Origin: Sporichthyaceae bacterium
GTDB taxonomy: Bacteria; Actinomycetota; Actinomycetes; Sporichthyales; Sporichthyaceae
Length of the DNA: 64,000 bases
Direction: 5' to 3'
NCBI GenBank assembly: GCA_036493475.1
Contig: DASXPS010000124.1
Span: 1 to 64,000 of the forward strand
The notes below the pieces were generated by a model, which made no database searches, was not told where the DNA came from, and worked only from the letters and a program-made list of their open reading frames with translations. Both the position numbers and the translations under genes were made by a program. Every line of letters starts with the position of its first letter. Position 1 is the first letter of the stretch. Positions 14,379 through 39,080 of the stretch are shown in pieces.

Positions 14379-17300
14379 GTGCAGCTGCGCCTGAGCGTGA
14401 ATCAGGAAGGTGGCTCCGCCACCGATCTGTTGATCGACGCCGACGCCGGCGTGACCATCGACGGGCTGGCGGCGGAGATCGCCCGCAGCGTGGGCGGCTC
14501 GGCGTCGCCTGAGCTGTTCCTCGACGGGGTGCGGCTCGATCCGGCGACGGCGCTGGGTGATTCGCCGATCCGCGACGGCATCGTGCTCGGCGTCGGGACG
14601 CCTGCCCGGGACGCGGGCCCGCTCGGGCCGGGGGTTTTCGAGCTGCGCGTGGTGGGCGGGCCCGGTGCGGGTGAGGTGTACCGCCTCGGGCCCGGCACGT
14701 ACCCGATCGGCGGGGCGGCCTCGGATTGGATCCGGCTGGCCGACAGTGCCCTGCCGGCGGCGACGCTGACCGTGGAGGTCGCCGAGAGCGGCACTGCGAC
14801 GGTGACAGTGGCGGGCGAAGCGCGGCTGGAGGAAACCCCGCTCAAGGGTGTGACGACCCCGTGGCCGAGCGGGCATTTGCTGGCCGTGGGTCGGGTGTTG
14901 TTGGAGGCGGCGCTGCCGGACTTCCCGGACGCGGCGCTGCACGTCTCCGAGGACGGGACGGGCCTGGACTACAGCCGCCCGCCGCGGCTCGCGCCGCCGG
15001 AGCGTAAGAACCAGTTCGCCCTGCCCGCCGCGCCCAAGGCCAACGAGCGCCGCCCGCTGCCCTGGGTGATGGCCGTGGTGCCGCTGATCGGCGCGGTGGC
15101 GCTGGCCGCGGTCACCAAGCAGACCACATTCCTGGCCCTCGCCCTGCTCAGCCCCATCTCCATGATGGCCAATCACTTCAACGAGCGGCGCACCGGAAAG
15201 CAGTCCTACGCGCGCACGGTCGAGGAGTACCAGCGCCGCCGCGACGCGATCGTGGCCGACGCCGAGGAGGCGCTGGCCACCGAGCAGGCCGCGCACCGCG
15301 CCGACTGCCCGGACCCGGCGTTGGTGGCGCTGCTGGCCACCGGCCCCCGCCAGCGGCTGTGGGAACGTCGCCACTTCGACCCGGACTGCGGGTTGGTCCG
15401 GCTCGGCACCGGGACGCTGCCCAGCGAGGTCGTGCTGACCGATCCCGACGTCGAGGAGCACCGCCGCCGCGAGCCACTGCCGATGCACGACGTGCCGATC
15501 ACGGTGCCGTTGCGCACGTTCGGCGTGCTCGGGTTGGCCGGCCGGGCCGCGGACGTTCGCGCGCTGGCCTGTTGGGTGGTCGCGCAGAGCGCGGCCCTGC
15601 ACAGCCCGACCGACCTGGGCATCTGCGTGCTCGCCGAGCCGGCCGCGGCACCGGCCTGGGGGTGGGTGCGCTGGTTGCCGCACGCCCGCCCGCGCAATGG
15701 GCAGGACACGCTCGCGCTGCTGGGCACGAGCACCCAGTCCGTCGCGCAACGGGTCGCCGAACTCGGGGCCCTGCTGGCGGAGCGTCAGGAAGAGCTGCGC
15801 AAGGCCGGGGTGACCGGGCGGCTGAACGTGCCCGACGTGCTGGTCGTGATCGACGGTTCCCGACGTTTGCGTTCCCTCCCCGGTGTGCCGCAGTTGCTCG
15901 AACACGGGCCGACCGTGGGCATTCACCTGCTGTGTCTGGAGAGCGAGGGTCGGTTCCTGCCCGAGGAGTGCAAGGCGGTCGGGATTATCAGCCAGAACGG
16001 CAATCTGTCGATGCGTCAGTCCGGAGCGGAGGGCATCGCGACCATCCGTCCGGACCTGGTCACCCCGGCCTGGTGCGAGAGGGTCGCCCGGGGCATGGCC
16101 GCGTTGCGCGACGTGTCCCATGACGACGACGCGACCCTGCCGGACGCCGCGCGGCTGCTCGACGTGCTCGGCCTGGCCAGCCCCACCGCGGACCGGATCG
16201 CCTCCGGCTGGGCCACCGGCGGGACGAGCACCCGCGCCGTGGTCGGCATCAGCCTGGACGGCCCGTTCGCCCTGGACCTACGCCGCGACGGTCCACACGG
16301 CCTGATCGCCGGCACCACCGGTTCGGGCAAGTCCGAACTGTTGCAGACCATCGTCGCCTCGCTCGCGGTAGCGAACCGGCCGGACGCGATGACCTTCGTG
16401 CTGGTCGACTACAAGGGCGGTAGCGCCTTCGCGGAGTGCGCGCGGTTGCCGCACACGGTGGGCATGGTCACCGACCTCGACGCGGGCCTGGTGCGCCGGG
16501 CGCTGGACTCGCTGGTCGCCGAACTGCAGCGCCGCGAGCACACCTTGGCCGCGGCCAAGGCGAAGGACCTGGAGGCCTATCTCGAGGCGCGACGGCGTAA
16601 CCCCGAGTTGGCAACGATGCCCCGCCTGGTCATCGTCATCGACGAATTTGCCACCCTGGTCAGGGAATTGCCGGACTTCGTCACCGGTCTGGTGAACGTC
16701 GCGCAGCGGGGTCGATCCCTCGGTATCCACCTGTTGCTCGCGACCCAGCGGCCCTCCGGTGTGGTGTCCCCGGAGATCCGGGCCAACACCAACCTACGCA
16801 TCGCGCTGCGGGTCACCGACGCGTCGGAGAGCAGCGACGTGATCGAGACCCCGGACGCCGCGCGCATCCCCAAGTCCGCGCCCGGCCGCGCCTACGTCCG
16901 GCTCGGGGCCGCCGCGTTGGTGCCGTTCCAGACCGCGCGGGTCGGCGCTCGGGCGCCGGGTCGCCGCGCCGTCGCTGCCCCGCCGCCGTTCATCACGGCG
17001 CTGGCCCCGGCCGAGTTCGGTGACGCCGCGCCACACCGTCCGCGCGAAGTGGCCGTCGACGAGACGCCGGTGACCGATCTCGCCGAATTGGTCGACGCCA
17101 TCAGCGAAGCCGCCGTCCAGTTGGGCCTGGCCAGCCAACCCAGCCCGTGGCTGGCCCCGCTGCCGACGCAGGTGACCGTGGCCGACCTGGACGCCGCGGC
17201 GAAGCCGAGCGAACGCGATGGCGGGCTGCGCCCGGCTCCGTTCGCGCTGGTGGACCTGCCCGACACGCAGTCCCGCGAGGCCGACACCATTGACCTGGCG

Positions 17301-18725
17301 ACCTTCGGGCACCTGTTCGTGGCGGGATCGCCGCGCACCGGTCGGTCCCAGACGCTGCGCACCATCGCCGGGTCCCTCGCGGCGCGCAACAGCGCCGCGG
17401 ACGTGCATCTGTTCGGCCTGGACTGCGGCAACGGTGCGCTGTTGCCGTTGGCCGGACTGCCGCACTGCGGGGCGGTGGTGCGGGCCGCGGAGACCGAGCG
17501 GGTGGAACGCCTGCTCACCAAATTCGCCGATGCCGCGCGGGATCGGATGCGCCTGCTCGGCGAGGGGAACGTCACCGACATCGGCGAGCAACGCGCCTCG
17601 GCGCCGGCGGCCGAACGGCTGCCGCACCTGGTGTTGCTGATCGACCGATGGGAGGGCTTCGTCGCCTCTCTCGGTGACCGGGACGGCGGTTCGTTGACCG
17701 ACCGGGTGATGCGCCTGGCCCGCGAGGGTGCCGCGTTGGGTATTCACCTGATCATCTCCGGCGACCAGACGCTGCTCGGCGGTCGGATGGGTTCGTTGAC
17801 GGACCGCAAGGTCGTACTGGGGCTGGCCGACAAGGGCGACTTCGGGTTGATCGGGATCAACGCGCGCACGGTGCCGGACGCGCTGCCGCCCGGCCGCTGC
17901 TACCGCGCCCCCGGCGGTGCGCAGGCCCAGATCGCCTTGCTGGATGCGGATCCAGCCGGTGCGGCGCAGGCCGACGCGCTGGCCCGGATCGGCGCGGAGG
18001 CCCGGGAGCGGGATGGCGAAATCCCCGAGAACCTGCAGCCGTTCGCGGTCGACGTGCTGCCCTCGCACATCACGTTCGAGGCGGCGTGGCAGTTGCGCCC
18101 GGCCGGCCACGCGCCGGGTTGGGCGCTGGTCGGGGTGGGTGGTGACCGACTGACCGCGATCGGCGTGGACCTGCTCGAGGGCACCCCGGCGTTTCTCATC
18201 GGCGGCCCGCCGCGGTCGGGCCGCAGCACCGCGTTGCACGCCGTCGCGGCGTCTTGTCTGGCGAGTGGGGTCCGGGTGCTGGTGATGACCCCGCGGCCCT
18301 CGCCCCTGGCGGGGTTGGCCGGCCGGGACGGCGTGGTCGCCGTCGAGGCCGACCCGGCACCGGAGGTGCTGCGCGACGCCATCGCCGCGGGCGGCCCACT
18401 GGTCGTGCTCGTCGACGACGCCGAACTACTGCGCGACGCCGCGGCCTCGGCGGAGTTGTCGGAGATCGTGCGCCGCACCTATCCCTCGGTGGCAGTGGTC
18501 GCGGCCGGCGACCCCGATGGCTTGGGCACCGGCTTCTCCGGCTGGCAGGTCGAGGCCCGCCGAGCCCGCCGCGGCCTGCTGCTGTCTCCGCAGAACCTCG
18601 CCGACGCCGACCTGATCGGGGTGCGGATCGCGCGCACGTCGATCGGCAACCCGATCGAGCCGGGGCGCGGGCTGTTGCATCTGGGGGACGCTCAGTTGTT
18701 GACGGTGCAGGTGCCGCAGGCGTAG
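14379..18725 (+). CDS. FtsK/SpoIIIE type VII secretion ATPase, EssC-like with N-terminal ubiquitin-like and FHA-like regions
   Basis: A 1448-residue motor ATPase. Residues 1-75 have the size and pattern of a YukD-like ubiquitin fold; about 83-200 look like an FHA domain. Two membrane helices follow (about 226-265), then three FtsK-type ATPase domains. Domain 1 has a proper Walker A (GTTGSGKSE, about 646) and Walker B (LVIVIDEFATL). Domains 2 (GSPRTGRSQ, about 983) and 3 (GGPPRSGRST, about 1274) carry Arg in place of the Walker lysine, though their Walker B strands (LLIDRW, VLVDDAE) are partly kept. GTG start with an upstream GGGGAC. This layout recalls Firmicute EssC more than mycobacterial EccC. 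It should drive export of WXG100-type substrates. Confidence 0.92.
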   Translation: MQLRLSVNQEGGSATDLLIDADAGVTIDGLAAEIARSVGGSASPELFLDGVRLDPATALGDSPIRDGIVLGVGTPARDAGPLGPGVFELRVVGGPGAGEVYRLGPGTYPIGGAASDWIRLADSALPAATLTVEVAESGTATVTVAGEARLEETPLKGVTTPWPSGHLLAVGRVLLEAALPDFPDAALHVSEDGTGLDYSRPPRLAPPERKNQFALPAAPKANERRPLPWVMAVVPLIGAVALAAVTKQTTFLALALLSPISMMANHFNERRTGKQSYARTVEEYQRRRDAIVADAEEALATEQAAHRADCPDPALVALLATGPRQRLWERRHFDPDCGLVRLGTGTLPSEVVLTDPDVEEHRRREPLPMHDVPITVPLRTFGVLGLAGRAADVRALACWVVAQSAALHSPTDLGICVLAEPAAAPAWGWVRWLPHARPRNGQDTLALLGTSTQSVAQRVAELGALLAERQEELRKAGVTGRLNVPDVLVVIDGSRRLRSLPGVPQLLEHGPTVGIHLLCLESEGRFLPEECKAVGIISQNGNLSMRQSGAEGIATIRPDLVTPAWCERVARGMAALRDVSHDDDATLPDAARLLDVLGLASPTADRIASGWATGGTSTRAVVGISLDGPFALDLRRDGPHGLIAGTTGSGKSELLQTIVASLAVANRPDAMTFVLVDYKGGSAFAECARLPHTVGMVTDLDAGLVRRALDSLVAELQRREHTLAAAKAKDLEAYLEARRRNPELATMPRLVIVIDEFATLVRELPDFVTGLVNVAQRGRSLGIHLLLATQRPSGVVSPEIRANTNLRIALRVTDASESSDVIETPDAARIPKSAPGRAYVRLGAAALVPFQTARVGARAPGRRAVAAPPPFITALAPAEFGDAAPHRPREVAVDETPVTDLAELVDAISEAAVQLGLASQPSPWLAPLPTQVTVADLDAAAKPSERDGGLRPAPFALVDLPDTQSREADTIDLATFGHLFVAGSPRTGRSQTLRTIAGSLAARNSAADVHLFGLDCGNGALLPLAGLPHCGAVVRAAETERVERLLTKFADAARDRMRLLGEGNVTDIGEQRASAPAAERLPHLVLLIDRWEGFVASLGDRDGGSLTDRVMRLAREGAALGIHLIISGDQTLLGGRMGSLTDRKVVLGLADKGDFGLIGINARTVPDALPPGRCYRAPGGAQAQIALLDADPAGAAQADALARIGAEARERDGEIPENLQPFAVDVLPSHITFEAAWQLRPAGHAPGWALVGVGGDRLTAIGVDLLEGTPAFLIGGPPRSGRSTALHAVAASCLASGVRVLVMTPRPSPLAGLAGRDGVVAVEADPAPEVLRDAIAAGGPLVVLVDDAELLRDAAASAELSEIVRRTYPSVAVVAAGDPDGLGTGFSGWQVEARRARRGLLLSPQNLADADLIGVRIARTSIGNPIEPGRGLLHLGDAQLLTVQVPQA

Positions 18726-33367: not shown

Positions 33368-34948
33368 TCAGGACGTCGTGCGCCCGGTCTCCTGCTCGTA
33401 GGTGAGCTTCGCATCGGAGATGCGGTCCTCCGGGGCGGTGGACGTGGACTGCGGTGCGTCGTTCGTGGCCGGCGGTGCACTGGAGGGCATCGCGGGGTCG
33501 TGCTCGTGGATGGCGAAGCCCGCCGAGGTTTCGGTCGCGTCGGGCGTCGCGGTCGCGCTGGGCGTCTGGCTCGGCGTGGCCGACGCGCTCGGCGTGGCGC
33601 TGGGCGTCGCGGACGGGCTCGGCGACGGGGACGTCGACGGTGTGGCCGCGACGCCCAGAGGCCCCGGCAGTTGCGGCAACGCGGCCAGAGTGCGGTCGGT
33701 GGTCTCGCCGAGGAACAGATCGCCGGGGTTGGGATCGTCGTCCTGCTCGGGCAGCAGTACCTGGGGCCGGCCGGGCAGCATCAGTGGGTGCAGCGCGGCC
33801 GGGTCCACGACCTGGAGCAACCGGTCCAGCAGGCCGGTGTGCAGGTGCGAGATGCGGTTATGGGTGCGGTGGTTGTTGAACCGGCCCGAGCCGCTCTCGA
33901 ACGCGGTCAGGATGTGCCCGCGGTAGAGGGTCATGTTCTCCGGCAGGCTCGGCGTCCACAGGCAGGCGACCGGGGCCTTCCACTGCTTGGGGTCGGTACG
34001 CCGAACGATGTTCATCTGCCCGCGGTAATGGCTGTTGGAGGAGATGAACACGAAGTGGTCCTCGGTCACCAGCAGGCCCTGGGTGCGCGGCGGCACCTTC
34101 CACGGGCCCTCGACCTGTTGCAGTCGGCCGTTGGCCTGGTTGACGGTGTAGCGGTACATCCGAGTCGGCCGCAAGATCGAGTGCCGCCCGGCCCATACGG
34201 AGCCGTTGGGCTCGACGAACATGAAGCCGGTGGATTGGATGGGTTGCGGGCGGCCATCGGCCCGCATGTAGGGCATCTTCCCGTTCTTGGCCACCGTCAT
34301 CAAACGCCGCAAGCGGGACAACGGGTATTGGCGCACCTTGGCCTGCTTGTAGTGCCCGGCCGTGTCTTGCGCGATCAGCCAGTTGCCGACCACGCCCATG
34401 GCCCCCAGGTGTGATGGTGCGATCTTCACCGTGCCGACGTGCTTGCCGGTGATCGGGTCGATGCCGACGAGGTAGGACTTGTGCCCGAGGTGGTACTCGC
34501 CGAGCAGGATCAGGGCGTGGCCCTTGCCGTCCCAGTTCCACCAGGTGGCCAGGCCCTGCGGGGAGTACTTGGAGAGGTAGGGCATCACCGGGCCGGGGTG
34601 AAACACCTCGTCGTAGAGCCGGGAGACCGACCCACCCTGGTAGCGGGCGCGCTTGGCCGGGCGCTGGCTGCCGTTGCACTTCGGGCCGGGTAGCGCCGGT
34701 GGCAGTACCCGCACCGCCGGGGTTGCGCCACTGAGCGGTGCCACGAACGCGCGGGCCCCGGCCGGGATGGCCGCCCCTATCGCCGCCGCCTCGGCGGCCT
34801 TGGCGACGGCGCCGTGATATGCCGAGTGATTCGGGCGCACCGCGTCGGCCAGGGTCGCGGGCAGCGAAACGGGCCCGTTGGGAGCGAGGGTGACCAGCGC
34901 GAGTCCGCCCAGCAGCGCGAGGGCTGCGTTCCGCGGACGCGGCGACAT
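33368..34948 (-). CDS. Secreted paralogue 1: two-cysteine repeat-rich protein with Ser/Thr/Pro stalk
   Basis: A 526-residue exported protein, the most divergent member of the four-gene array. The signal peptide (about 1-30) follows an excellent GGAGGAAG ribosome site at the ATG 34948. The core (about 75-390) shares blocks with the others: YSPQGLATWWNWDG, KSYLVGIDPITG, VVGNWLIAQD, QGLLVTEDHFVF and TPSLPENM. Repeated VxG/WxAG strands suggest a beta-propeller-like fold. The family's two cysteines are kept (GPKCNGS and VACLWTPS). Unlike the others it has a long C-terminal tail (about 420-520) very rich in Ser, Thr and Pro, probably a wall-spanning or glycosylated stalk. Function unknown. Confidence 0.8.
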   Translation of the reverse strand: MSPRPRNAALALLGGLALVTLAPNGPVSLPATLADAVRPNHSAYHGAVAKAAEAAAIGAAIPAGARAFVAPLSGATPAVRVLPPALPGPKCNGSQRPAKRARYQGGSVSRLYDEVFHPGPVMPYLSKYSPQGLATWWNWDGKGHALILLGEYHLGHKSYLVGIDPITGKHVGTVKIAPSHLGAMGVVGNWLIAQDTAGHYKQAKVRQYPLSRLRRLMTVAKNGKMPYMRADGRPQPIQSTGFMFVEPNGSVWAGRHSILRPTRMYRYTVNQANGRLQQVEGPWKVPPRTQGLLVTEDHFVFISSNSHYRGQMNIVRRTDPKQWKAPVACLWTPSLPENMTLYRGHILTAFESGSGRFNNHRTHNRISHLHTGLLDRLLQVVDPAALHPLMLPGRPQVLLPEQDDDPNPGDLFLGETTDRTLAALPQLPGPLGVAATPSTSPSPSPSATPSATPSASATPSQTPSATATPDATETSAGFAIHEHDPAMPSSAPPATNDAPQSTSTAPEDRISDAKLTYEQETGRTTS

Positions 34949-35150
34949 GACTTCCTCCGGCAGCGGGCGGTCGGCCAGGGTGGGTACCACCGATGGACGC
35001 GCGCCCGTGCGCATTCCACCGGGGGATACGCCGGAGTATGGTCGCGCCGGACAAAAACGCCAGGGGCGCGGCTGCAGGATTTACGGAAACCTAACGTGCG
35101 ATGACCGTGGATCTTCCTTCGGTTTCCGCGATGGGCCCCGAACAGCCCAA

Positions 35151-35323
35151 TCAGAGCAGCTGATCGGTCAGCGAGCGCACCTTGTCCAGCGGGGCGACGT
35201 GCACATCGCCCACCCGATTGACTGCCTGGGGATATTTGTGCGAACCGCTCTCGAAGTCGAGTCGCCGGAGTCGAAGTGCCCGGCCCAGACGTGACCGTCG
35301 TAGGAGGTCATGAAGCTCGCGCC
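35151..35323 (-). pseudogene. Deletion remnant of a fifth secreted paralogue
   Basis: On the minus strand the first 60 bases encode GASFMTSYDGHVWAGHFDS, matching the middle of the intact paralogues (ASFMASYDGHLWAGHH). Then, after a frame change near 35255, another frame encodes FESGSHKYPQAVNRVGDVHV and a family-like C-terminus to a TGA at 35151. In intact members about 90-95 residues lie between these two blocks, including the second conserved cysteine. The copy is thus internally deleted and frameshifted and cannot make a working protein. The N-terminal half is also gone. A 7-base direct repeat ACTTCGA flanks the junction. Confidence 0.8.
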
Positions 35324-35378
35324 CGTGCACGAACTGCACGTCGCCGGTCGGCAGCTACCGGCAGGAGTCGAGCATCGA

Positions 35379-36527
35379 CTACTCCAAGTGAGATCCGGCC
35401 GAGGGTTGATCTTTATGTGGTTCAGAGAACGTCGATGCCGGGGGAGCCTGATTCGTCAACGCACTCAATGCGGCATACGGGGCGATGTGCAGGTTGGTGA
35501 CGCGATTCTGTGCCTTCGGGTACAACGCGGAGCCGCTCTCGTAGACCACCAGGACGCGGTCATCCAGCACCGCGAGGCTTTCGCCCATGCTCGGCGTGGC
35601 GAAGCACCGACCCAGCGGGCTGATCGACGGTGACCGCTCAACCACGGTCATCGTGCCGGAGCGGGTGCCCAGCGAGCTCTCGAACACGAAACGGTCGTCG
35701 GTGACCAGCAGGCCCTGGGTCTGCGCCGGTACCTCGTAGGCCTGGCCCACCGGGGTCAGCACGCCGGTGGAGGACACCGCGTACTGGAACATCCGGTCCG
35801 GGCCGTTGGCGTTGTAGTGCCCCGCCCAGAGGTACCCGTCGTGCGTGGCCAGGAAGCTGGCGCCGTAGATCTCCTGAAGATCCGCGGAGTGTGGCACGAA
35901 CGGTTGCGTGCCGGTCAGGTGCGCCTTCTGGAACGCCACCGCAAGGTCTGCCAGTCGGTAACGGCGAACCCGTTCCGGCCCGCGCCGCGGGCGGTCCTGC
36001 GCGATCAGCCAGTCGCCGACCACGGCGAGTCCGCCGAAGTGCGACTCCTCGGTGGTCACCGTGGCGTAGGGCAGCCCGGTGTCCGGGTCCAGCGCAACCA
36101 GGTACGACGGTGAACCCAGGCGGTACATGCCGATCAGCAACAGCTTGTGGTGCAGGCCGTCCCAGTCCGGCCAGACCACCATGCCCTGCGGGGTGTGCGT
36201 GGACAGGAAGGGGATCGCGAAGGACTGGCGGAACGTCTCGTCGTAGACGTAGGAGGCGGACGGCCCCGGGTAGAACCGGGAGCTGTTGGTGCTCGGCGCG
36301 TCCGCGCACACCGAGGAGTCGGGCAACCGGCTCAACGCGATCGGGTGGGCGGCGAACGCAGCGGCGGTCGCCGACGCCTCGTCGGTCGTGGCGCCGGAGG
36401 AGGAGGCCGCGGCCACCACGGCGACGGTCACACTCGCCGCGCCCATCGCGGCGGCCTTGCGGGGCGGTGAGGAACGTCGGCGGCGGTGCTGGGGGACGCG
36501 GCGGTGCCGACCGGAAGCAGATGACAT
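35379..36527 (-). CDS. Secreted paralogue 2: two-cysteine repeat-rich protein
   Basis: A 382-residue exported protein. The n-region is unusually long and Arg-rich (RRRR), followed by a hydrophobic segment (MGAASVTVAVVAAASS). The mature part shares with the array: FYPGPSASYVYDETF, TPQGMVVWPDWDG, GDWLIAQD, ASFLATHDGYLWAGHYN, TQGLLVTDDRFVFESS and CFATPSMGESL. Cysteines are exactly two (SSVCAD; LGRCFATP). The short polar C-terminus lacks a stalk. It starts with ATG 36527; a second ATG at the hydrophobic segment is possible. Stop lies 56 bases from the ruined fifth copy. Function unknown. Confidence 0.8.
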   Translation of the reverse strand: MSSASGRHRRVPQHRRRRSSPPRKAAAMGAASVTVAVVAAASSSGATTDEASATAAAFAAHPIALSRLPDSSVCADAPSTNSSRFYPGPSASYVYDETFRQSFAIPFLSTHTPQGMVVWPDWDGLHHKLLLIGMYRLGSPSYLVALDPDTGLPYATVTTEESHFGGLAVVGDWLIAQDRPRRGPERVRRYRLADLAVAFQKAHLTGTQPFVPHSADLQEIYGASFLATHDGYLWAGHYNANGPDRMFQYAVSSTGVLTPVGQAYEVPAQTQGLLVTDDRFVFESSLGTRSGTMTVVERSPSISPLGRCFATPSMGESLAVLDDRVLVVYESGSALYPKAQNRVTNLHIAPYAALSALTNQAPPASTFSEPHKDQPSAGSHLE

Positions 36528-36656
36528 GGCAGACCGCCCCCCAGTCCTCGACCGCGGCCGTTCCACGGTGGTGCTCCGGACGTTAGTGATCAGGCAGCGG
36601 CCGGCAAGACGCGCTGCTCCGATCGGGTGCGCCGGGTTTCGACCGGTGCGCCCGGG

Positions 36657-37823
36657 TCACCTTTGCGCGGTGCGTTCCGACATGCCGCTGTCCCCGGTCG
36701 GGTTGGCCAACGTGCTCAGCGTCGCGTACGGCGCCTCGTGCATGTGCGTCACATGGTTGGCCGATTTCGGGAACCGGTAGGACCCGCTCTCATAGACCAC
36801 CAGGACCTGACCGTTGTCGTACACCGCGCCCTCGCCCAGCGAGGGCGCGCCGAAGCACAGGCCGGGTGCGCCGGACAAGTAGTGGTTCTGGGCGGTGACG
36901 GTCACGAAACCGGGCTCGTCACCGTTCACGTTGTGGCTCATGAAGATGAACCGGTCCGCGGTGACCACCAAGCCGTCGGTGAACGCCGGCACCTGCCACG
37001 CGTCGCCGACCTGGGTGAGCACGCCGTCGCTGGAGACCGAGTACTGGTACATCCTGTCGACGGTCCCCCCGTGGTGCCCGGCCCACAGGTAGCCGTCGTA
37101 GGAGGACATGAAGCTGGCGTTGTAGACCGGCTGCGTGCCACCCCAGCGCTTCACGTATGGCTTGCTGCCGTCGGTGTGCGACTGCTCGAAGGCCGCAGCC
37201 AGGTCGACCAGGCGGTACTTGCGCACGCTCTCCCCGCCCCACTGGGCCTGGTCCTGGGCGAACAGCCAGTCGCCGACCACCGCGATGCCGCCGAGGTGGG
37301 CCTCCAGCACCCGGATGGTGCCGTAGACCGAACCGTTGGACGGGTCCAAGCCGACCAGGTAGGAGTCGTGGTTCTTCTGGTACATGCCGATGACCACGAG
37401 GCTGGCGCCGTCGTTGAACCAGCGCGGCCAGACCGCCATGCCCTGCGGGGTGTAGTCCTCCGACAGGTAGGGGACCGCGAAGGTCGCCTTGAACAGCGAG
37501 TCGTACAGCGCCGACCCGGAGGGGCCGGGGTAGAAGGTCTTGAGGCCCTGTCCGGTGATGTCACAGATGCGCTCGGTGGGCAGCGGGAGGTTGGCCGGAC
37601 GATTCTGATCGGCCGCGGCCGGCTGCGGCTCGGAATCGACGGTGGACGGGTTGGCCTGAGCCCCGCTCGGGCCGCCGGCGGTCGGGCCGGCGGACAGCGG
37701 GACGCTGATCTGCGCGACCGGCGCCACGGCCTGCGCGGACCCCATCGGATGCAAGGCCATGCCAAAGCCGGTGACGGCCGCTGTGGCCACCACCGCCATT
37801 CCCAAACGTCGCATTGCGCTCAT
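36657..37823 (-). CDS. Secreted paralogue 3: two-cysteine repeat-rich protein
   Basis: A 388-residue exported protein with signal peptide (about 5-32, ending near GSAQA). AGGGGCGG sits just before the ATG at 37823; an ATG three codons further in would also work. Shared blocks include FYPGPSGSALYDSLF, TPQGMAVWPRWFNDG, SYLVGLDPSNG, GGIAVVGDWLFAQD, NASFMSSYDGYLWAGHH, DRMYQYSVSSDGVLTQ, DGLVVTADRFIFMS and CFGAPSLGEG. Mature cysteines are two (ERICDI; GLCFGAP). Downstream 168 bases separate it from paralogue 4, upstream region has two ACATGT palindromes 4 bases apart. Function unknown; the motif-by-motif identity with its neighbour is clear. Confidence 0.82.
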   Translation of the reverse strand: MSAMRRLGMAVVATAAVTGFGMALHPMGSAQAVAPVAQISVPLSAGPTAGGPSGAQANPSTVDSEPQPAAADQNRPANLPLPTERICDITGQGLKTFYPGPSGSALYDSLFKATFAVPYLSEDYTPQGMAVWPRWFNDGASLVVIGMYQKNHDSYLVGLDPSNGSVYGTIRVLEAHLGGIAVVGDWLFAQDQAQWGGESVRKYRLVDLAAAFEQSHTDGSKPYVKRWGGTQPVYNASFMSSYDGYLWAGHHGGTVDRMYQYSVSSDGVLTQVGDAWQVPAFTDGLVVTADRFIFMSHNVNGDEPGFVTVTAQNHYLSGAPGLCFGAPSLGEGAVYDNGQVLVVYESGSYRFPKSANHVTHMHEAPYATLSTLANPTGDSGMSERTAQR

Positions 37824-37991
37824 TCCGCCCCTTTGAGCACATGTCACCACATGTGTATTGCAAGGGACTCAGAGTAAGTCTCGATCGGCCAATGTCGTCG
37901 TTCTTGGTGACATGGGTGCCCCGGGTTGAGAGCAATTTTTCCCACCGCGGCATTTACCCAGGTCAGCGGCCTTTGAGACGTCTTGACCCGA

Positions 37992-39080
37992 TCAGCGCGG
38001 CGGCGGATTCAGCAACGCGGCGAGTTTGGCGTACGGCGCGATGTGCAGGTTGGCCACCCGGTTCACCGCGTCCGGGTAGCGGGCCGAGCCGCTCTCGAAC
38101 GTGACGAAGACCTGGTCCCCGTTGAGCACCATGCCCTCGGTCATGCTCGGCGTGCGGAAGCACCGGCCATGTCCGTCGGCCAGGTGGTGGGTCTTCATGG
38201 TCACCGTCATGTCCGACTGCTGGGTACCCGAGGCGCTGCTGAAGATGAAGCGGTCCGCGGTGACCACCAGACCGTCGATCTTCGGCGGCACCTCCCAGGG
38301 GTCACCGAGTTGGGTCAGGGTGCCGTCCTCGGCGACCGAGTACTCGTACATTTGGTCGATTCCGGCGCCGTGGTGCCCGGCCCAGAGGTGGCCGTCGTAG
38401 GAGGCCATGAAGCTGGCGAAGTAGACCCGCTGCAGTGCGCCGAAGCGCTGTACGAACGGCTTGCTGCCGTCGGCCCGGGACTGCTCGAAGGCCGCCGCCA
38501 GGTCCTGCAGGCGGTACTTGCGGACCTGCTCCCCGCCGTCCTGGGCCTCGTGCTGGGCGATCAGCCAGTTACCGACGATGGCGATGCCACCGAAGTGGGC
38601 CGCCTCGGTGCGCACGGTGCCGAACACCCCGCCGGTGGTTGGGTCGACCCCGACCAGGTAGGAGTCGCCGTCGGAGTACATGCCGATCACCAGCAGGGGC
38701 GTGCCGTCGCTGAACCACTTCGGCCACAGCGTCATGCCCTGCGGGGTGAGGTCGGGCAGGTAGGGGATCGGGTAGGACTTGCTGAACGTCTGGTCGTAGA
38801 CGTAGGACGCGGACGGGCCCGGATAGAACGGGCCGTTCTGCGTCACGGTCTGGGTCGCGCAGGGCAGCGGCGTCCACTGGGCGCGGGTGGGCGGCGGGGC
38901 GGCGAACGGCACTGCCAGCGCGGGCACGGTGAGCGGCGCCCCCGTGCGCGGCACGGACGCGGGCGGCTGCGGGTCGGTCTGCGCAGCGGCGGCAGAAACC
39001 GGCGGACGGACCACGATGCTCAACGCGGCGAGAACCGCCGCGGCCAGCGCCATGCCCGTCAACCGACGTGTGTTGCGCAC
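37992..39080 (-). CDS. Secreted paralogue 4: two-cysteine repeat-rich protein
   Basis: A 362-residue exported protein and the shortest, most canonical member. The signal peptide spans about residues 8-32 (ALAAAVLAALSIVV core). The mature part shows FYPGPSASYVYDQTF, TPQGMTLWPKWFSDG, SYLVGVDPTTGG, GGIAIVGNWLIAQ, FASFMASYDGHLWAGHHG, DQMYEYSVAEDGTLTQ, DGLVVTADRFIFSS, GRCFRTPSMTEG and FESGSARYPDAVNRVANLHI. It has exactly two cysteines. GTG start; upstream 247 bases lack other genes, so it could lead the array's transcription, though each member has its own gap. No known enzyme motif is visible. Confidence 0.82.
   Translation of the reverse strand: MRNTRRLTGMALAAAVLAALSIVVRPPVSAAAAQTDPQPPASVPRTGAPLTVPALAVPFAAPPPTRAQWTPLPCATQTVTQNGPFYPGPSASYVYDQTFSKSYPIPYLPDLTPQGMTLWPKWFSDGTPLLVIGMYSDGDSYLVGVDPTTGGVFGTVRTEAAHFGGIAIVGNWLIAQHEAQDGGEQVRKYRLQDLAAAFEQSRADGSKPFVQRFGALQRVYFASFMASYDGHLWAGHHGAGIDQMYEYSVAEDGTLTQLGDPWEVPPKIDGLVVTADRFIFSSASGTQQSDMTVTMKTHHLADGHGRCFRTPSMTEGMVLNGDQVFVTFESGSARYPDAVNRVANLHIAPYAKLAALLNPPPR

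What the first reader, a model, noticed from the sequence alone, without database searches (positions are those of the whole stretch)
33368..39080. Tandem array of four secreted paralogues of unknown function, possibly an undescribed surface system
Four intact adjacent minus-strand genes encode exported proteins sharing about ten ordered blocks (PQGM-type, SYLVGxDPxxG, VVGxWLxAQ, ASFMxSYDG, WAGH, VTxDRFxF, PSMxE, FESGS, NRVxNLH). Repeating short strands suggest a beta-propeller or a similar repeat fold. No enzyme signature or known family is apparent to me. A local expansion of a secreted family in one genome is typical of surface or host/environment-facing functions.
Basis: partly seen in the sequence, partly recalled or inferred. 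Interest (0 to 1): 0.75.

Follow-up and report, generated by a model that had tools for sequence, protein, structure and literature searches.

The report
Secreted five-bladed propeller gene array
Four neighbouring genes (plus the wreck of a fifth) make exported proteins predicted to fold into five-bladed propellers, belonging to a family with no Pfam or NCBIfam entry that various bacteria export by at least two routes, probably to bind or process an extracellular molecule that is still unknown.

Summary
Four intact minus-strand paralogues (33368-39080) share a ~280-residue exported domain, and a deleted, frameshifted fifth copy lies between two of them. The genome has three more intact copies. 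A congener has five, one of them alone in the syntenic slot, so the slot expanded locally.

None of the four matches Pfam or NCBIfam. Profile self-comparison finds five ~51-residue repeats (0 of 500 column shuffles as high), and the two best profile matches among solved structures are propellers.

The domain recurs with signal peptides in Amycolatopsis, Prauserella, Saccharopolyspora and a Solirubrobacteraceae MAG. In one other actinobacterial family it sits between a WXG100-like N-domain and an EspC-like C-domain ending in YxxxD, the type VII secretion signal; all five such genomes encode EccB. Distant anchored and lipoprotein relatives exist. Gln114, Tyr135, His162, Tyr247 and Glu329 are invariant in 29 divergent proteins.

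Best explanation: an unnamed family of extracellular five-bladed propellers working through a conserved polar pocket, probably enzymatic, otherwise ligand-binding. Substrate unknown. It is not glutaminyl cyclase. The "surface system" reading is only partly supported: no wall anchor or consistent partner genes were found.

The parts
37992..39080 (-). paralogue 1 (362 aa, GTG start): signal-type N-terminus plus five-bladed propeller domain
36657..37850 (-). paralogue 2 (397 aa): signal-type N-terminus plus propeller domain
35379..36566 (-). paralogue 3 (395 aa; real start may lie further in): signal-type N-terminus plus propeller domain
33368..35014 (-). paralogue 4 (548 aa; start may be a later ATG): signal-type N-terminus, propeller domain, Ser/Thr/Pro-rich tail; syntenic counterpart of the single copy in the congener (47% identity)
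35163..35320 (-). remnant of a fifth paralogue, two pieces in different frames (35264-35320 and 35163-35255), about 85 residues between them deleted
38022..38861 (-). core propeller domain of paralogue 1 (residues 74-353), five repeats of about 51 residues
38859..38861 (-). Cys74 codon of paralogue 1, conserved in the Sec-type members, inferred to pair with Cys307
38160..38162 (-). Cys307 codon of paralogue 1, conserved in the Sec-type members, absent from the WXG100-fused members
38595..38597 (-). His162 codon of paralogue 1, invariant in 29 aligned relatives (with Gln114, Tyr135, Tyr247, Glu329)
33371..33787 (-). low-complexity tail of paralogue 4, ending with the motif RxSDAxxxY shared with two congener copies

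Best explanation
The array encodes Sec-exported proteins whose working part is a five-bladed beta-propeller of about 280 residues. In the Sec-type members it is probably stapled by one disulfide between the N-terminal segment and the fourth blade. The repeat starts of the blades (PQG, HxGG, ASF, QG, MxEG) together with [FY]ESG should place an invariant polar set (Gln114, Tyr135, His162, Tyr247, Glu329) around or near the central opening. I think this pocket binds and most likely chemically processes (hydrolase or lyase type) a small extracellular ligand, and that the local duplication supplies variants of substrate range or expression. Shown by computation: paralogy, export-type N-termini, the fivefold repeat, the invariants, the family's distribution, and the type VII secretion form. 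Inferred: the disulfide, the pocket geometry, the enzymatic role. Unknown: the substrate.
For: Fivefold repeat: self-alignment score 26.2 against a maximum of 15.3 in 500 column shuffles (smaller alignment 1 of 500), with offsets of 1, 2, 3 and 4 repeat lengths. The two best profile matches in the PDB are propellers (1l0q 0.0022, 8pjs 0.0045; two PQQ-type propellers near E 1). Weak matches to the propeller families Glu_cyclase_2, Lactonase, PQQ_2, Kelch and NHL. Export: signal-type N-termini; in relatives a WXG100-like N-domain and EspC-like C-domain (23.8 bits against a cut-off of 23.5 in one protein), with YxxxD 18-22 residues from the C-terminus in 5 of 5; EccB in those 5 genomes. Invariant Gln, Tyr, His, Tyr, Glu in 29 proteins. 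Distant anchored homologue at hhalign probability 98.35, E 1e-14. Local expansion at a syntenic slot.
Against: No structure could be predicted, so the positions of the invariant residues are inferred from repeat register. No enzyme family matches. Tyr and Glu can be structural in propellers. Genomic context gives no consistent pathway: three loci lie near polyol or sugar genes (an iol cluster, a sugar ABC cluster, a UgpB-like ABC operon), most do not. A pure binding role explains the same facts nearly as well.
Confidence: 0.5

Rival explanations
1. Non-catalytic ligand binding: secreted lectin-like or small-molecule-binding propellers, the paralogues differing in ligand, as in the five-bladed lectin tachylectin-2 (from my own knowledge).
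For: Extracellular, expanded locally with 34-54% identity, no enzyme match, one distant relative is a predicted lipoprotein in an ABC-transporter operon.
Against: Lectin-type specificity usually varies between paralogues; here a polar set stays invariant across Sec, type VII and membrane-anchored forms of low identity. There is one conserved set, not one site per blade.
Confidence: 0.3
2. Structural or assembly component of the cell surface (S-layer-like or filament scaffold), with the propeller as a building block.
For: Best PDB profile match is a surface-layer propeller, 1l0q. EspC-like partner domains in the type VII form. Ser/Thr/Pro-rich stalk-like tails on several copies.
Against: The 1l0q match covers repeat features common to many propellers. 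Most members are single stand-alone domains without an anchor. Copy number is low and distribution patchy.
Confidence: 0.12
3. A divergent glutaminyl cyclase (type I, five-bladed), modifying exported peptides.
For: Same blade number and similar blade motif; weak profile similarity (Pfam 0.0021 in Prauserella copies; hhalign 4.5e-5 over 64 columns).
Against: Residues conserved in actinobacterial cyclases (the YEGTG-type, LTW, EGWGL, LNEL and LNGIA motifs) have no counterparts in the family alignment. Only part of the domain aligns.
Confidence: 0.03

Closest known systems
Type I glutaminyl cyclase / glutamine cyclotransferase (PF05096; PDB 3nol, 2faw)
   Same: Five-bladed propeller (PMC7948796), about 230-280 residues, comparable blade motif with a conserved Gln-Gly in blade 1 and weak profile similarity.
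   Different: None of the cyclase-specific Glu/Trp/Asn motifs; the family has an invariant His in blade 2 and an ESG motif in blade 5 instead.
YVTN-type surface-layer propeller (PDB 1l0q)
   Same: Extracellular propeller; best sequence-profile match among solved structures (E 0.0022).
   Different: Partial, low-scoring match (profile positions 40-155); seven-bladed in the solved protein (own knowledge), five repeats here.
WXG100 / EspC type VII secretion substrates (PF06013, PF10824, PF21725)
   Same: In one actinobacterial family the propeller lies between a WXG100-like N-domain and an EspC-like C-domain that ends in YxxxD.
   Different: The window's own proteins lack these domains and carry Sec-type signals; I know of no described substrate with such a propeller, and a limited paper search found none.
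Lactonase / PQQ / NHL / Kelch propeller families
   Same: General propeller features; weak hits of single members.
   Different: All far below curated cut-offs and matching only stretches.

Membership tests
Beta-propeller fold, five blades | Five tandem repeats of about 40-60 residues | tested here: met
   Profile self-alignment at 51-residue offset, 0 of 500 shuffles as high; five repeat starts identifiable
Beta-propeller fold, five blades | Four-stranded blades in a three-dimensional circular arrangement | not testable with these tools
Type I glutaminyl cyclase (PF05096) | Family profile above curated cut-off | tested here: not met
   No window protein matches; best 0.0021 among the nine rows of A4
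Type I glutaminyl cyclase (PF05096) | Conserved Glu/Trp motifs (YEGTG-type, LTW, EGWGL) seen in actinobacterial cyclases | tested here: not met
   Compared by eye, with the hhalign alignment
Surface-anchored protein | LPXTG, lipobox or C-terminal transmembrane anchor | tested here: not met
   No strongly hydrophobic C-terminus in the four; no lipobox or LPXTG seen on inspection
Sec-exported protein | N-terminal basic region plus hydrophobic segment | tested here: met
   Hydropathy maxima 1.9-2.7 over 15 residues at all four N-termini; no dedicated signal-peptide predictor was available
Type VII (ESX) substrate, window proteins | WXG100-like N-domain and C-terminal YxxxD/E helix | tested here: not met
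   No WXG100 match in the four proteins; EccB not found in the genome
Type VII (ESX) substrate, fused relatives L077-L081 | WXG-type N-domain, YxxxD/E near C-terminus, ESX genes in the genome | tested here: met
   Pfam cut-off reached only by EspC in L081, and three of the five have WDS or WSS in place of WxG

The most novel reading that the evidence does not exclude
The family is an undescribed class of extracellular propeller enzyme with a Gln/His/Tyr/Glu active site that bacteria have repeatedly fitted to different export routes (Sec, type VII secretion, lipoprotein, membrane anchor), implying a common extracellular substrate.
Probability: 0.3. Interest if true: 0.65.

Novelty: new variant of a known kind. 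Interest (0 to 1): 0.48.

Why it matters
The family has no Pfam or NCBIfam model, so its members are probably annotated as hypothetical proteins. Recognising one domain across Sec-secreted, type VII-secreted and membrane-anchored proteins gives a concrete, small target for structure work, names five residues to mutate, and offers a case in which the same folded cargo domain appears to travel by Sec in one lineage and by an ESX system in another.

Tried and rejected
(1) Known family: Pfam, NCBIfam and PHROGs gave nothing above cut-off for the propeller part. (2) Glutaminyl cyclase: rejected on motifs. (3) Lactonase: hhalign alignment only partial and off-register. (4) C-terminal motif RxSDAxxxY as a sorting tag shared with other secreted proteins: a search of four related genomes found it convincingly only in the propeller proteins, next best E 0.02. 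(5) Phage or plasmid origin: no plasmid match; the one 'phage' record that matches (MT835755) reads as a bacterial chromosome piece. (6) hhalign's built-in self-comparison returned nothing, so I wrote a profile self-alignment with shuffled controls. (7) Operon or pathway from context: neighbours differ between copies. The polyol/sugar neighbours of three loci are a lead only, since such genes are common and I made no background count. (8) The first genome-contig query found no relatives; a broader alignment found six.

Full report
OBSERVATION. The window lies in contig C124 of a 4.27-Mb actinobacterial genome whose order is represented by only five held genomes. Four intact minus-strand ORFs at 33368-35014, 35379-36566, 36657-37850 and 37992-39080 align over one domain, with identity to the first (37992-39080) of 53, 50 and 34%. 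Between the genes at 33368-35014 and 35379-36566 lies a wreck of a fifth copy (about 35163-35320): two pieces in different frames with the middle deleted. The own genome holds three more intact copies, one on C194 and a tandem pair on C46.

FAMILY RANGE. The congener G001 has five dispersed copies and three genomes of the sister genus have none. In samples of the class and phylum the domain is rare: 11 of 393 and 8 of 396 genomes, the window's own genome included. Some of the weakest phylum hits are only general propellers, such as L112. Named carriers are Amycolatopsis, Prauserella, Saccharopolyspora and a Solirubrobacteraceae MAG, with one or two copies each (the Amycolatopsis sp. 2-2 copy is split in two frames). 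In the maximum-likelihood tree, paralogues 1-3 plus the C194 copy form one clade, and paralogue 4 groups with the C46 pair and all five G001 copies. The window's slot is syntenic with G001 contig C94. There the order (biotin-protein ligase, response regulator, histidine kinase, tag, one propeller gene, DUF3117, M17 aminopeptidase) is the same, with a single propeller gene. The slot therefore holds one gene in the congener and four plus a remnant here. The tree does not show whether paralogues 1-3 arose here or were lost from the congener.

FOLD. I compared the family profile with itself. With 17 members the best off-diagonal alignment runs at an offset of 51 residues, and further alignments run at about 104, 161 and 209; 1 of 500 column shuffles scored as high. 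With 25 members the score is 26.2 against a shuffle maximum of 15.3, 0 of 500. Five repeats can be read: PQGL..., HLGGIAV..., ASFMAS..., TQGLVVT..., MPEGITV.... The two best profile matches in the PDB are propellers, 1l0q at 0.0022 and 8pjs at 0.0045. Five weaker rows (E 0.23-1.2) include two PQQ-type propellers but also a porin and a subtilase cytotoxin subunit, which I take as chance. Single members touch the Glu_cyclase_2, Lactonase, PQQ_2, Kelch and NHL models below cut-off. I conclude a five-bladed propeller, likely but not proven. Two cysteines (Cys74, Cys307 of paralogue 1) are conserved in the Sec-type members and lacking in the WXG100-fused ones, as expected of a disulfide formed outside the cell.

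EXPORT ROUTES. The window proteins have signal-type N-termini and no C-terminal anchor. In family f26 five proteins carry the same domain between N- and C-terminal helical-looking regions. Pfam recognises WXG100, T7SS_signal and EspC features in two of them (L077, L081), only EspC in L081 above its cut-off. All five end with YxxxD 18-22 residues from the C-terminus; YxxxD/E is the described type VII secretion signal (PMC3935865). All five genomes encode EccB; the window genome and its congener do not. A sixth, looser case, L082, has a WXG100-like region but no YxxxD near its end, and its genome showed no EccB. So in f26 this domain is most likely a type VII cargo. More distant relatives are membrane-anchored (L109-L111; L109 has hhalign probability 98.35, E 1e-14) or a predicted lipoprotein (MT835755).

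MECHANISM. In an alignment of 29 proteins, Gln114, Tyr135, His162, Tyr247, Gly270 and Glu329 are invariant, and position 269 is Gln in 26 and Asp in 3. Gln114, His162 and position 269 fall at the starts of repeats, which in propellers commonly face the central opening (own knowledge). Such persistence of polar residues across export routes and low identity suggests a functional pocket. I favour a catalytic one; a binding pocket is the main rival. Context is weak. The C46 pair lies between iolA and iolD of an inositol cluster, the Prauserella copy beside a sugar-type regulator and ABC genes, and the gut relative in a UgpB-like ABC operon with a PHP-domain hydrolase. Most other copies have unrelated neighbours, and I did not count a background.

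COMPARISON. Type I glutaminyl cyclases are five-bladed (PMC7948796) and show the closest blade motif, but their conserved Glu/Trp motifs are missing here, so membership fails. No curated family was found. No paper held the terms WXG100, beta-propeller and type VII secretion together, which is a limited search of an open-access library.

VERDICT. Real, not an artefact; fold well supported; export well supported; role open. I rate it a new family within a known fold, of moderate interest, the type VII-fused form being the most surprising part.

Noticed in passing
window 14379-18725 (+): 1448-aa FtsK/SpoIIIE ATPase resembling YukB (E 5.7e-64) and EccC5 (1.3e-57), although EccB was not found in this genome: possibly a reduced type VII-like system.
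   Followed up: partly
L016 6523-14806: The tandem propeller pair of contig C46 sits on the opposite strand between iolA (MMSDH) and iolD, with iolC nearby: an inositol catabolism cluster.
   Followed up: partly
L096 8088-12857 and L094 6573-9283: Next to the WXG100-fused propeller gene lie one (L094, overlapping) or three tandem (L096) lipoproteins of one family, the L094 one with a weak PD40 propeller match.
   Followed up: partly
L133 (MT835755.1): GenBank record called 'Bacteriophage sp.' encodes ABC sugar transport genes, a PHP-domain hydrolase, a cobalamin-dependent methionine synthase-like protein and an antiporter-like protein: looks bacterial, not phage.
   Followed up: partly
L047 7929-8979: The copy in Amycolatopsis sp. 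2-2 is split over two frames while that of A. eburnea is intact: frameshift or sequencing error.
   Followed up: no
L022 9058-9892: In genome G006 the family gene is broken into three pieces, a likely pseudogene.
   Followed up: partly
window 43006-63527: Run of glycosyltransferase-type genes, with an ECF sigma factor and zinc-finger gene pair just before it; not studied.
   Followed up: no
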